This document shows positions 4,913 through 32,498 of a stretch of DNA of 36,680 bases, piece by piece (within the stretch, counting starts at the first letter, position 1; each line of letters begins with the position of its first letter). Made by a program: the position numbers and the translations under genes. Source of the DNA: Bacteroidaceae bacterium (lineage in GTDB: Bacteria > Bacteroidota > Bacteroidia > Bacteroidales > Bacteroidaceae); the NCBI GenBank assembly GCA_017381015.1, contig JAFOCV010000116.1, positions 1 to 36,680 of the forward strand. Direction: 5' to 3'. Below the pieces are notes generated by a model that was not told the DNA's origin, ran no database searches, and saw nothing but the letters and a program-made list of their open reading frames with translations.

Positions 4913-6187
4913 TTACTCAGAGCGCTTTGAAACGCGGCTACCGATAAGAGCGTAGAACAATAGGTATGCTGCGCAGAATACTACTACCCAGAAGCTGGTC
5001 ATGTAGTCTGTCAAGTCAGCAACGTAACCCTGGATACCCATCATGATAGCGCAACCGAATACCATGGTCATGAAGATACCAGAAGCGATAGCGGTGTACT
5101 TGCCAAGACCCTCTACAGCCATGTTGAAGATAGCACCCCACATTACTGATGTGCAAAGACCAACCAACAAGAATGAGAAGATGCCAAGGGGGACAGGCTG
5201 CCAGATAAGCTCTAGCTTACCCCAGTCAACACCAGGGAAGTTAACCAATACGTCTGCGGGAGCATACATACCGAAGATAACCAATGCCAATGTAGCGATA
5301 GATACTGTGGTAATCATAGCGCGAGCACTAACCTTGCTACCGATAGAAGCACCTACGAAACGACCTACAAGCATCATAGCCCAGTATACAGCTACAATCA
5401 TACCTACAGTAGCAGCAGGAATAGAGTAGGGCTCAGATGTAAGCATCTGCTGAACAGCGTTGGGCACACCTACCTCGATACCCATGTACAAGAAGATAGC
5501 CAAAGCACCGAGAGCAAAGTGACGGTGGCTCATAGCACCCTTGATAAGGTCTACACGAACAGGTGCCTGCTCAGGCTCCTCAATCTTGGTGAAAAGAATA
5601 ACGATGAATGCAATGATAAAGATAGCAAGAGCAATCATCAAAGCAGGAGTAGCGTCAGCAATCTTAGCCTTGCTTGCGTCTGCGATAAGAGCACCCATAA
5701 GGATGTAACAAGCTACTGCAGCAGAAGAGTTGAATACACCACCAATCTGAATCAACTGGTTACCAGAGTTACCACCACCACCAAGAAGGTTAAGCATGGG
5801 GTTAACTACGCAGTTCAAGATACACATGCAAAGACCAGCGATGAATGCACCAATTAGATAGATACCGAATACAAGACCAATGTTCTCCTGAGCATTGAAC
5901 TGACCGCTCAACCACTGGATAAGGATACCTGTAGCACCTACAACTAGACCGATAAGAGCAGTCTTCTTGTAACCGAACTTAGCGATTAGCATACCTGCGG
6001 GAATACCCATCACCAAGTAAGCGATAAAGTTACCGTAGTTACCAATCTGTGCAAGAACGTTTGAAATCTCACCCTGGTTCTTGATAATGGTTGCCATAGG
6101 TGTACACAAGTTGGTAACGAAGGCAATCATTGCAAATAGCGCAATCATTACAATAATCGCGCCCCACTGTTTTGTTTTTTGAGCCAT
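4913..6187 (-). CDS. FucP/GluP-family MFS glucose/galactose transporter
   Basis: The 424-aa protein is hydrophobic throughout, with about twelve predicted membrane segments. It resembles the FucP/GluP subfamily of the major facilitator superfamily, which imports monosaccharides by proton or cation symport across the inner membrane. The N-terminal region contains TPMATIIKNQ and the MGIPAGMLIAKFGYKKTALIG helix-loop typical of the group (first halves of the MFS repeat). Its position between galM and galK makes galactose (or glucose/galactose) the most likely substrate; that is inference from context. It starts with MAQKTKQWG, 129 bp after galM, and the gap holds a strong RNA hairpin that could set its level relative to galM. 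Uptake of fucose released by the neighbouring GH95 enzyme cannot be excluded. Confidence 0.92.
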   Translation of the reverse strand: MAQKTKQWGAIIVMIALFAMIAFVTNLCTPMATIIKNQGEISNVLAQIGNYGNFIAYLVMGIPAGMLIAKFGYKKTALIGLVVGATGILIQWLSGQFNAQENIGLVFGIYLIGAFIAGLCMCILNCVVNPMLNLLGGGGNSGNQLIQIGGVFNSSAAVACYILMGALIADASKAKIADATPALMIALAIFIIAFIVILFTKIEEPEQAPVRVDLIKGAMSHRHFALGALAIFLYMGIEVGVPNAVQQMLTSEPYSIPAATVGMIVAVYWAMMLVGRFVGASIGSKVSARAMITTVSIATLALVIFGMYAPADVLVNFPGVDWGKLELIWQPVPLGIFSFLLVGLCTSVMWGAIFNMAVEGLGKYTAIASGIFMTMVFGCAIMMGIQGYVADLTDYMTSFWVVVFCAAYLLFYALIGSRVSKRSE

Positions 6188-28266: not shown

Positions 28267-31200
28267 ATGAGTAAAAAATTTGCAGAACGAACTAAGCTAA
28301 ATCTTAGCGAAGTCAACAAGGAGGTTCTTGGTCAGTGGGATGCAGAAGATGTCTTCCACAAGAGTATGACAGAGAGAGAGGGTTGTCCTTCTTTCATTTT
28401 CTTTGAAGGACCTCCATCAGCTAATGGTCATCCCGGTATTCACCATGTATTGGCTCGCTCGCTAAAGGATACCTTCTGTCGTTTCAAGACAATGAAGGGT
28501 TATCAGGTAAAGCGCAAGGCTGGTTGGGATACTCACGGATTGCCCGTAGAACTTGGTGTGGAAAAGGAACTAGGCATCACCAAGGAGGATATCGGAACAA
28601 AGATTTCTATCGAGGATTACAATCGTCGTTGCCGCGAGAATGTGATGATGTTCACATCTGAGTGGGAGGACCTTTCTCATAAGATGGGTTACTGGGTGGA
28701 TATGGAAAATCCTTATATCACCTACGACAATAAGTATATTGAAACCTTGTGGTGGCTTTTGAAGCAGTTGTACAACAAGGATTTGCTCTACAAGGGTTAC
28801 ACCATTCAGCCTTATTCACCTGCCGCTGGTACTGGTTTGAGTAGTCACGAGTTGAATCAGCCAGGTTGCTACCGTGATGTTAAGGATACTACCGTTACTG
28901 CTCAGTTCCGCGTACTTTCAGTGGGTGGTTGCTCAGCAGCAGAGGCTTTGCCAAAGGAGAATCTTTATATCCTTGCCTGGACAACAACTCCATGGACACT
29001 TCCTTCAAATACTGCACTTTGCGTAGGTCCTAAGATTGACTATGTGGCTGTTAAGGGTCAGAATCCCTACACCAATCAGGAGGCCGTATATGTAGTTGCA
29101 GAGAATCTCTTGTCTTCTCACTTCAAGGCAGAAGAAGGCACTGAATTTGAAATCCTTTGGAAGGGTAAGGGTGCGGACCTCGTTGGTATCAAGTACCAGC
29201 AGTTGATGCCTTGGGTGAAGCCTTGTGCAATAGAGAATGGCAAGCCAGTTGTTAAGGAGGATGATGCTTTCCGTGTAATCCCTGGTGACTACGTTACAAC
29301 AGAGGATGGTACCGGTATCGTACACATTGCTCCCACCTTTGGTGCAGATGATGCCAAGGTAGCCAAGGATGCTGGTATTCCTAGCCTCTTCATTATGGAT
29401 AAGGCTGGTGATACTCGTCCTATGGTTGACTTTACCGGTAAGTACTTCATGCCTGAGGATATGAACCAGGAGTTCTATGAGTTGTGCGTCAACAAGGAGA
29501 ACTATGCTAAGCATCAGGGTCAGTACGTGAAGAACGCTTACGATCCTAAGTTCAACGTGGATGGTCGTTATGACGAGAAGGCTGCTGCAAAGGAGATGGA
29601 CCTCAACGTACTTCTCTGCATCGAAATGAAGGAAGAGGGTTGTGCATTCAAGATAGAGAAGCATGTTCACAATTATCCTCATTGCTGGCGTACCGACAAG
29701 CCCGTACTTTATTATCCTTTGGATTCTTGGTTTATCCGTTCTACTGCTGCTAAGGAACGTATGATGGAGTTGAACAAGACCATCCTTTGGAAGCCAGAAA
29801 GTACCGGTACAGGTCGCTTTGGTAAGTGGTTGGAGAATTTGAACGACTGGAATCTTTCTCGCTCTCGTTACTGGGGTACTCCATTGCCCATCTGGCGCAA
29901 TCGAGACACACGTGAGGAGATTTGCATCGGTTCTGTAGAGGAACTTTACAATGAGATAGAAAAGGCAGTTTCTGCAGGTGTGATGGCTTCAAATCCTCTT
30001 AAGGATAATGGCTTCGTACCTGGTGATATGTCTAAGGAAAATTATGATAAGATTGACCTACACCGTCCCTATGTTGACCACATCAAGTTGGTAGGAGAGA
30101 GTGGTGCTGTTCTTACTCGCGAGCTCGACCTTATCGACGTATGGTTTGACTCTGGTGCTATGCCTTATGCTCAGATTCACTATCCTTTTGAGAATAAGGA
30201 AGAGTTGGACAATGGAACATGCTTCCCTGCAGACTTCATTGCTGAGGGTGTTGACCAGACACGTGGTTGGTTCTTCACTCTTCATGCTATCTCTACCATG
30301 GTATTCGATTCAGTGTCTTACAAGGCTGTAATCTCTAATGGTTTGGTTCTGGATAAGAATGGTCTTAAGATGTCCAAGCGCCTAGGCAATGCTATCGATC
30401 CTTTTGGTGCTATCGAGCAATATGGTTCTGATGCCGTTCGTTGGTACATGATTACCAACTCTCAGCCTTGGGACAACTTGAAGTTCGACGTAGATGGTGT
30501 GAAGGAGGTTACTGGTAGCTTCTTTGGCAAATTGTACCAGACATATTCTTTCTTGACAATGTATGCCAACGTAGATGGTTGGAACTTCTCAGAGGCAGAG
30601 GTACCCGTAGCAGAGCGTCCTGAAATGGATCGTTGGATTATTAGCTCGCTTAATTCTCTTATACGTGACGTTGAGCAGTGCTACAATGATTACGAACCTA
30701 CTCGTGCCGGTCGTCTCATCCAAACCTTCGTTGTAGATAATGTCAGCAATTGGTTTGTACGTCTGTCCAAGAAGCGTTTCTGGGGTGGTGAAATGACTGC
30801 CGACAAGTTGTCTGCATATCAAACTCTATATACTTGTTTGGAAACAGTAGCACGCCTCATGGCTCCTATCGCACCATATTATGCTGACCGTTTGTATCGT
30901 GATTTACATGAGGGACGTGGCGAGGAGAATGTTGGTAGTGTACATCTGGCTCAATTCCCCGTTGCCGATACATCTGTTATCGACAATGAACAGGAAGAAA
31001 GAATGGCACTGGCTCAGCAGATAACCAGTATGATTCATTCTCTTCGTAAGAAGGAGGCAATCAGCGTTAAGCAACCTCTTCAACGCATCGCTATCCCTGC
31101 TATGAATGCAGAACAGCAGGCACGCATCGAAGCTATGAAGCAACTTATCCTGGACGAGGTAAATGTCAAGGAGATAGAATTTGTAGAAGGTGCTGGTATG

Positions 31201-31680
31201 CTTGTCAAGAAGGTTAAGTGCAACTTCCGTACCATGGGTAAGAAGTTTGGCAAGCAGATGAAGGCCGTGGCTGCAGCTGTTGCTGAGATGAGCCAAGAAC
31301 AGATTACCATGTTGGAGCAGGGTAGTGTTACACTTTTGGTTGAGGGTGCAGATGCACTCATCGAACTTGAGGATGTAGAAATCTATAGCGAGGACATTCC
31401 TGGTTGGAGTGTAACAAATGCCGGTACTCTCACCGTTGCTCTTGACCTAACCATTACCGAGGAATTGCGCCTCGAGGGTATGGCTCGCGAGATTATCCGC
31501 AGCATCCAGCAGATGCGTAAGGATAGCGGTTTCGAAATTACCGACCGTATTATCGTTACTTTGCCTGATAATGACGATACTCGTGCTTGCCTATCAGCTA
31601 ATTATGATTATGTAGCTAGTCAGGTATTGGCCACAGAGATTAATTTCTCTGGTGATGCCATTGCAGTAGAAAAGGTTTAA
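28267..31680 (+). CDS. ileS: Isoleucyl-tRNA synthetase, IleRS2-like with GIHH signature
   Basis: This 1137-aa class I synthetase charges tRNA-Ile in the cytosol. It has the Rossmann catalytic core, an inserted editing domain (~residues 190-390, with TTPWTLPSNTALCV and DGTGIVHIAPTFG), the KMSKR loop at 701-705 and a long C-terminal anticodon-binding region without the zinc-binding cysteines of the E. coli type. Length, KMSKR and the ending suggest the eukaryote-like IleRS2 class. At the HxGH position the sequence is PSANGHPGIHHVLARSLKD, so the signature reads GIHH (57-60) with His and Gly exchanged. I chose the ATG at 28267 over an upstream TTG at 28237, which lies inside the promoter. It precedes lspA by 203 bp. 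Confidence 0.97.
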   Translation: MSKKFAERTKLNLSEVNKEVLGQWDAEDVFHKSMTEREGCPSFIFFEGPPSANGHPGIHHVLARSLKDTFCRFKTMKGYQVKRKAGWDTHGLPVELGVEKELGITKEDIGTKISIEDYNRRCRENVMMFTSEWEDLSHKMGYWVDMENPYITYDNKYIETLWWLLKQLYNKDLLYKGYTIQPYSPAAGTGLSSHELNQPGCYRDVKDTTVTAQFRVLSVGGCSAAEALPKENLYILAWTTTPWTLPSNTALCVGPKIDYVAVKGQNPYTNQEAVYVVAENLLSSHFKAEEGTEFEILWKGKGADLVGIKYQQLMPWVKPCAIENGKPVVKEDDAFRVIPGDYVTTEDGTGIVHIAPTFGADDAKVAKDAGIPSLFIMDKAGDTRPMVDFTGKYFMPEDMNQEFYELCVNKENYAKHQGQYVKNAYDPKFNVDGRYDEKAAAKEMDLNVLLCIEMKEEGCAFKIEKHVHNYPHCWRTDKPVLYYPLDSWFIRSTAAKERMMELNKTILWKPESTGTGRFGKWLENLNDWNLSRSRYWGTPLPIWRNRDTREEICIGSVEELYNEIEKAVSAGVMASNPLKDNGFVPGDMSKENYDKIDLHRPYVDHIKLVGESGAVLTRELDLIDVWFDSGAMPYAQIHYPFENKEELDNGTCFPADFIAEGVDQTRGWFFTLHAISTMVFDSVSYKAVISNGLVLDKNGLKMSKRLGNAIDPFGAIEQYGSDAVRWYMITNSQPWDNLKFDVDGVKEVTGSFFGKLYQTYSFLTMYANVDGWNFSEAEVPVAERPEMDRWIISSLNSLIRDVEQCYNDYEPTRAGRLIQTFVVDNVSNWFVRLSKKRFWGGEMTADKLSAYQTLYTCLETVARLMAPIAPYYADRLYRDLHEGRGEENVGSVHLAQFPVADTSVIDNEQEERMALAQQITSMIHSLRKKEAISVKQPLQRIAIPAMNAEQQARIEAMKQLILDEVNVKEIEFVEGAGMLVKKVKCNFRTMGKKFGKQMKAVAAAVAEMSQEQITMLEQGSVTLLVEGADALIELEDVEIYSEDIPGWSVTNAGTLTVALDLTITEELRLEGMAREIIRSIQQMRKDSGFEITDRIIVTLPDNDDTRACLSANYDYVASQVLATEINFSGDAIAVEKV

Positions 31681-31883
31681 GGTAGGACCTGTAAATTAGC
31701 TTTGTGTTATATGATGTCTATTACGCAGTAGATTTTTAATTTGAGCAAACGAACATATTGACCTATGTGAGTAAGTGAAAATGAAAAGTATACAAGTAAG
31801 AGAAATCGTAGAACCGAAGCAATAGGAATTCTACTTTATGAAAAGGATAAATTTATTAATAGAACCTACCTTAACTCTTTCGT

Positions 31884-32498
31884 ATGACTAAACAACGAAA
31901 ACAGATAATAACGGCCGCTAGCATCACGCTGGCGGCTATTATCATCGACCAAATCATCAAGATTTTGGTTAAAACAAACATGTTCATGCACGAGGTAATA
32001 GAGATAACACCATGGTTCAAGATTCTCTTTACAGAAAATAGTGGCATGGCTTTTGGCATAGAGCTTGTTGACAAGATTTTCCTTACCTCTTTCCGCCTTG
32101 TGGCCGTATCCTTTCTTATATATATAATAGGTAGTATTATCAAACGCGGTATCAACACAGGTTTTCTCATCTGCATGTCATTAATATTGGCAGGTGCAAC
32201 GGGCAATATCATTGATTGTCTTTTTTATGGCATGATATTCAATAATCCTCCTGCACCCATTGTTGCCGAATTCGTTCCCTTCGGTACCGGATATGCTTCA
32301 ATGTTCTATGGCAAGGTGGTGGATATGTTCTATTTCCCTCTTGTAGAATGGAACTGGCCCTCATGGTTGCCTTATATCGGTGGAGAGCATTTTATATTCT
32401 TTTCGCCAATATTCAACTTTGCTGATGCTTGCATTTCCTGCAGTGTAATATATATGTTACTGTTCTATCGAAAGCAGTTGCAAAACATTATGAAATAA
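31884..32498 (+). CDS. lspA: Lipoprotein signal peptidase (signal peptidase II)
   Basis: This 204-aa inner-membrane aspartyl protease removes signal peptides from prolipoproteins after lipid attachment. Four membrane segments are visible (~10-30, 68-86, 93-115, 180-197). Family motifs are FTENSGMAFG, GATGNIID, KVVDMF with catalytic Asp147, and FNFADACIS with catalytic Asp181. It is about 40 residues longer than the E. coli enzyme because of a loop between the conserved GNIID and VVD motifs (~115-145) and another before FNFAD (~150-172), as usual in Bacteroidota. It leads a short operon with a DUF4296 lipoprotein and a 54-aa gene. Several predicted substrates are encoded in this window. Confidence 0.96.
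   Translation: MTKQRKQIITAASITLAAIIIDQIIKILVKTNMFMHEVIEITPWFKILFTENSGMAFGIELVDKIFLTSFRLVAVSFLIYIIGSIIKRGINTGFLICMSLILAGATGNIIDCLFYGMIFNNPPAPIVAEFVPFGTGYASMFYGKVVDMFYFPLVEWNWPSWLPYIGGEHFIFFSPIFNFADACISCSVIYMLLFYRKQLQNIMK

What the first reader, a model, noticed from the sequence alone, without database searches (positions are those of the whole stretch)
28435..28446. IleRS with the class I signature rearranged from HxGH to GIHH
Aligned without gaps to eukaryote-like IleRS (PFATGLPHYGHILAG), this protein reads PSANGHPGIHHVLAR. The first His and the Gly of HxGH are exchanged, giving GxHH. I recall published work on a subset of IleRS2 enzymes where this swap coexists with full activity and causes extreme mupirocin resistance. 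The remaining features (KMSKR, ~1140 aa, C-terminus without the zinc cysteines) fit IleRS2. If this is the only ileS of the cell, the organism should be intrinsically highly resistant to mupirocin, with the altered motif as the housekeeping state rather than an acquired resistance gene.
Basis: partly seen in the sequence, partly recalled or inferred. Interest (0 to 1): 0.8.

Follow-up and report, generated by a model that had tools for sequence, protein, structure and literature searches.

The report
Ordinary Bacteroidota IleRS with GIHH motif
This is the cell's normal enzyme for loading isoleucine onto its tRNA; its swapped active-site motif is real, but it looks like the standard form in this whole group of bacteria and has already been explained in print as a cause of very high resistance to the antibiotic mupirocin.

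Summary
Window 28435-28446 encodes GIHH at residues 57-60 of a 1137-aa isoleucyl-tRNA synthetase (28267-31680, +), ungapped where E. coli IleRS1 has HIGH; no HxGH occurs elsewhere in the protein. The best PDB match is their GVHH-mutant IleRS2, 8c8w. It is the only ileS found in the 84.6%-complete genome.

294 of 296 have exactly one ileS match. So this is the group's housekeeping enzyme, of a published kind. Intrinsic mupirocin resistance is predicted, not measured. The phylum-wide fixation, which I did not find stated in the texts seen, suggests an ancestral change rather than present drug selection.

The parts
28267..31680 (+). ileS, isoleucine--tRNA ligase type 2 (1137 aa), the only ileS found in the genome
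   Evidence: TIGR00392 1002 bits against cut-off 621.4; best PDB chains are P. megaterium IleRS2; only full-length hit in own genome
28435..28446 (+). class I signature motif in the swapped form GIHH (residues 57-60)
   Evidence: ungapped alignments
30178..30192 (+). HYPFE (residues 638-642), a motif named as characteristic of eukaryotic/eukaryote-like IleRS
   Evidence: found; motif named in PMC4861432 (passages)
30343..30345 (+). Leu693, aligned with His582 of P. megaterium IleRS2 and with the Phe of HGF in E. coli IleRS1; the IleRS1 Phe is reported to stack on mupirocin
   Evidence: Leu in 117 of 117 aligned sequences left after removing rows contained in another; role of the position from PMC10485003 section 9
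30367..30381 (+). KMSKR, second class I signature (residues 701-705)
30628..31083 (+). anticodon-binding domain (PF08264)
   Evidence: residues 788-939
31141..31656 (+). C-terminal DUF5915 region, no zinc-site cysteines
   Evidence: residues 959-1130; no CxxC
31884..32498 (+). lspA-like ORF (signal peptidase II; name recalled from sequence), downstream neighbour
   Evidence: ORF; a match to it lies 116-1115 nt downstream of the ileS match in 70 of 81 stretches (window and 80 loci), no match in 11

Best explanation
The gene is the sole, housekeeping isoleucyl-tRNA synthetase of a Bacteroidales bacterium (nearest named relatives are titled Bacteroides, Bacteroidaceae or Prevotellaceae). It is a type 2 enzyme (IleRS2) carrying the published non-canonical signature GXHH. 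By homology with the studied IleRS2 enzymes, His59 (third position) does the job of the usual first His in forming isoleucyl-adenylate. This is possible because the motif helix is shifted in IleRS2. The same bulky His collides with mupirocin, so the enzyme should bind the drug only in the high-micromolar to millimolar range. Shown here: sequence, alignment, type, copy number in the sample, distribution in the sample. Inferred: catalysis, Ki and cell resistance.
For: Motif and its ungapped placement. Best solved-structure match is 8c8w, 796 bits; the P. megaterium IleRS1 chains score 292 and 301 bits. HYPFE present, no CxxC. One full ileS in the own genome; the other four hits are three pieces in one 910-aa frame, of which one piece was scanned and scores best as ValRS, and one LeuRS. 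294 of 296 phylum genomes have exactly one TIGR00392 match at E<=1e-120, 2 have none. GxHH sites in 295 of 296: 192, 80 of 80, 23 of 24 by letters. For the 103 sites lie inside the ileS match and the other (G176) is in a gene cut by a contig end. Published kinetics and structures for the swap.
Against: No Ki, MIC or structure of an IleRS from this group was seen. The genome is 84.64% complete, so a second ileS could be missing from it. The 192 genomes were checked against ileS coordinates only for some rows, by eye; 4 of them (G002, G104, G115, G183) have a second site. A phylum-wide search for HxGH was not run. One of 80 genomes (G027) also rings once in the reversed-pattern control. Engineered GVHH enzymes lost up to 10-fold in kcat or KM, so the effect depends on context. 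[quoted passage not shown]
Confidence: 0.92

Rival explanations
1. GIHH is a resistance adaptation still maintained by exposure to mupirocin-like antibiotics in this organism's habitat.
For: Brkic et al. propose antibiotic pressure for the origin of the motif; by their Table 1 motif exchange changes Ki about 175- to 820-fold.
Against: A GxHH site in 295 of 296 genomes, spread over 50 family and 140 genus labels. A trait maintained only by local exposure should be patchy or revert, as the paper reports for Deinococcus-Thermus. The looser pattern did list a few HxGH- or HxHH-shaped sites (G110, G015, G141, G268, G028, G129), but these six lie outside the ileS match. Distribution cannot exclude an ancient drug origin.
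Confidence: 0.2
2. The protein is a catalytically impaired or specialised paralogue, with a canonical IleRS elsewhere.
For: The swap abolishes activity in IleRS1 (published).
Against: It is IleRS2-type, the only ileS found in the genome and single in 294 of 296 sampled genomes; the motif codons vary synonymously under strict protein conservation.
Confidence: 0.03
3. The swap is a frameshift, sequencing error or misalignment.
For: None seen.
Against: In-frame, ungapped, and shared by 78 of 80 named loci, the other 2 lacking the stretch.
Confidence: 0.01

Closest known systems
G/AXHH IleRS2 of Brkic et al. 2023 (S. griseus; D. radiodurans ALHH; 86 sequences; PMC10485003)
   Same: IleRS2 type, first and third motif residues swapped, housekeeping role
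   Different: This one comes from a group that the main text of that paper does not name (0 hits for Bacteroid; figures and source data not seen); not assayed; KMSKR and Leu693 here
P. megaterium IleRS2, GVHH mutant, PDB 8c8w
   Same: Best sequence match in the PDB copy; ungapped over the motif
   Different: 8c8w carries an engineered swap of an HVGH enzyme; here the swap is natural
MupA/MupB acquired mupirocin-resistance IleRS (NF000257, NF000258)
   Same: Homologous (720 and 780 bits)
   Different: Far below their cut-off of 1900 bits; here the sole ileS found, not an added gene
E. coli IleRS1
   Same: Same enzyme; 247 identities in 869 aligned positions of a multiple alignment
   Different: E. 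coli has HIGH, HGF and C-terminal CxxC pairs; this protein has GIHH, NGL and no CxxC

Membership tests
IleRS (TIGR00392) | score over curated cut-off | tested here: met
   1002.2 against 621.4 bits
IleRS type 2 | closer to IleRS2 than IleRS1 structures | tested here: met
   P. megaterium IleRS2 8c8w 796 bits; IleRS1 8c9f 300.6 and 8c9e 292.4 bits
IleRS type 2 | HYPFE motif | tested here: met
   residues 638-642; motif from PMC4861432 (passages)
IleRS type 2 | C-terminal subdomain without zinc motif | tested here: met
   no CxxC in the protein; feature from PMC10485003 Fig. 3 legend
G/AXHH IleRS2 | Gly or Ala first and His third in the signature | tested here: met
   GIHH, residues 57-60
G/AXHH IleRS2 | mM-range mupirocin Ki | not testable with these tools
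   needs an ATP/PPi exchange assay
G/AXHH IleRS2 | catalytically competent, housekeeping | tested here: inconclusive
   only ileS found in the genome and single in 294 of 296 sampled genomes implies it; no assay
MupA/MupB | score over curated cut-off | tested here: not met
   720.3 and 779.5 against 1900 bits

The most novel reading that the evidence does not exclude
The GxHH signature was fixed once, at or before the origin of this phylum, and no reversion is seen in the 295 sampled genomes that show the motif stretch. If so, the phylum's mupirocin insensitivity is an ancient, locked-in by-product of a different catalytic geometry (swapped His plus Leu693) and not a maintained drug-resistance trait.
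Probability: 0.5. Interest if true: 0.35.

Novelty: already known. Interest (0 to 1): 0.2.

Why it matters
An apparently broken universal active-site motif turns out to be the normal state in nearly every sampled genome of a phylum of gut and environmental bacteria. This fits the published mechanism and predicts that mupirocin will hardly act on their IleRS, which bears on selective media and resistome annotation. Beyond that it adds little to the 2023 paper.

Tried and rejected
Paper searches for mupirocin with Bacteroides, Prevotella, Bacteroidetes or Flavobacterium gave no Ki or MIC for an IleRS or strain of this group in what was listed: 18 of 18 papers, 15 of 46, 10 of 19, 10 of 102, 8 of 34. 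Search listings and abstract starts only, except as follows. PMC13085705 (passages): its model predicted that mupirocin increases Bacteroidaceae diversity on plates, weak indirect support; the same paper says that mupirocin inhibits non-bifidobacterial strains. PMC7564983 (passages): mupirocin is listed among the drugs for Staphylococcaceae. PMC4861432 and PMC9437257 (passages): 0 hits for Bacteroid; the former lists Firmicutes, Actinobacteria, chlamydiae, spirochaetes and deinococcales as IleRS2 bearers. The first strict pattern (ANGxPGxHH) missed 104 of 296 genomes; in 103 of them a GxHH site was then found with the residue before N left free, so an early impression of two classes was dropped. 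A structure prediction was not run, because solved templates exist and coordinates cannot be inspected here.

Full report
What was checked. The frame at 28267-31680 (+) encodes a 1137-aa protein that scores 1002 bits against the IleRS model TIGR00392 (cut-off 621.4). It has PF00133, PF08264 and DUF5915 matches. Codons 28435-28446 are GGT ATT CAC CAT, residues G57 I58 H59 H60. Against E. coli IleRS1 the stretch aligns without gaps to HIGH. Against P. megaterium IleRS2 it aligns without gaps to HVGH in 8c8v and 8c8u and to GVHH in 8c8w (identities of the entries). No HxGH occurs elsewhere, there is no CxxC in the protein, and KMSKR is at 701-705.

Type. Solved-structure matches rank the four P. 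megaterium IleRS2 sequences first (796 to 784 bits); the P. megaterium IleRS1 chains 8c9f and 8c9e score 301 and 292 bits. HYPFE, which PMC4861432 (passages) names as characteristic of eukaryote-like IleRS, is present at 638-642. The enzyme is not a member of the acquired MupA or MupB families (720 and 780 against 1900 bits).

Copy number. In the window's own genome (2.45 Mb, 162 contigs, 84.64% complete) the protein search gave five matches: the gene itself, three pieces on C9 that share a 910-aa frame, and one on C26. One C9 piece was scanned and scores best as ValRS; the C26 stretch scores as LeuRS, over that model's cut-off. Of 296 genomes drawn evenly from the phylum, 294 have exactly one TIGR00392 match at E<=1e-120 and 2 have none (there only the 3 best candidates of each genome were scored). 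For the 104 genomes nearly all candidates were scored: one match each in 79 of 80 at E<=1e-120, and 23 of 24 with a match over the cut-off; at the looser E<=1e-60 some of the 24 show a further match far under the cut-off, not examined. The two genomes without a match are G291, whose only IleRS piece is a C-terminal fragment at a contig start, and G176, whose motif site lies 46 bases from a contig end.

How common the motif is. The pattern for A-N-G-x-P-G-x-H-H matched 192 of 296 genomes, including all 73 labelled own, same family or same class; the reversed-pattern control is 0 in the rows of that call, and 4 genomes have two sites. The 104 genomes without a match were re-examined with N-G-x-P-G-x-H-H: 80 of 80 matched (one of the 80, G027, also rings once in the control). 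For the remaining 24, the looser pattern lists a GxHH site in 23, by my reading of the printed letters; the miss is G291. The sum is 295 of 296. Of the 103 sites lie inside that genome's ileS match and the other is the cut gene of G176. For one search only some rows were compared, by eye. Among 80 loci with record titles, 78 have GIHH; L081's match lacks the N-terminus and L012 lacks the stretch. The 121 aligned rows hold 117 sequences once rows contained in another are removed; in these, positions 57, 59, 60 and 693 never vary. They were picked with a motif expression that allowed HxGH as well.

Mechanism and prior work. Brkic et al. 2023 (PMC10485003; outline with abstract, passages, and sections 6, 7, 8, 9, 11, 18 and 31 read) report 86 IleRS2 with G/AXHH and 77 with HXGH. 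D. radiodurans ALHH IleRS2 has a mupirocin Ki of 6.6 mM, and changing it to HVGH drops Ki to 8.1 uM. Putting GVHH into T. thermophilus and P. megaterium IleRS2 raises Ki from 0.20 to 35 uM and from 1.08 to 460 uM, at a cost of up to 10-fold in kcat or KM. [quoted passage not shown] IleRS1 cannot accommodate the swap. All of this transfers to the present enzyme by homology only. In addition, the position of the IleRS1 Phe that stacks on mupirocin (His582 in P. megaterium IleRS2) is Leu693 here and in all 117 aligned sequences. Its contribution is untested.

Verdict. The main text of PMC10485003 has no occurrence of Bacteroid (its figures and source data were not seen). The searches, of whose hits only a part was listed, showed no paper that I recognised as stating the phylum-wide fixation. 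That is the only part I cannot place in print, and it may well be in that paper's figure 2.

Noticed in passing
window 31681-31883: The gap between the ileS and lspA matches is 207 nt here, against 402-1115 nt in 64 of 81 stretches (window and 80 loci), 116-140 nt in 5 other loci (L013, L014, L015, L021, L027) and no lspA match in 11. In L019 and L006 the gap holds a 126-128 aa DksA/TraR-like ORF (name recalled). No such gene was found in the window's 84.64%-complete genome (one match to PF01258, below cut-off; none, no positive control).
   Followed up: partly
L012 about 6090-6100: The ileS of this assembled genome lacks the stretch with the motif and changes frame there; probably an assembly deletion.
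   Followed up: partly
L139 261-782 (-): Genome G115 holds, on a 5,580-base contig next to a transposase-like ORF (name recalled, not tested), an ORF whose first ~77 residues look like an IleRS N-terminus with GIHH and then run into other sequence; its ileS frame on C1 is open. Chimeric contig or gene fragment.
   Followed up: partly
genome G272, contig C6:95484-98616; genome G067, contig C5:3383-5968: The ileS of G272 appears in pieces with a TAA inside one, and that of G067 has one TAG inside; sequencing error or real change not distinguished.
   Followed up: no
KMSK motif of L006-L085: The fifth residue of the KMSKS motif is Arg in 59 and His in 21 of 80 sites found by the expression used; His appears in many Prevotella-titled relatives.
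   Followed up: no
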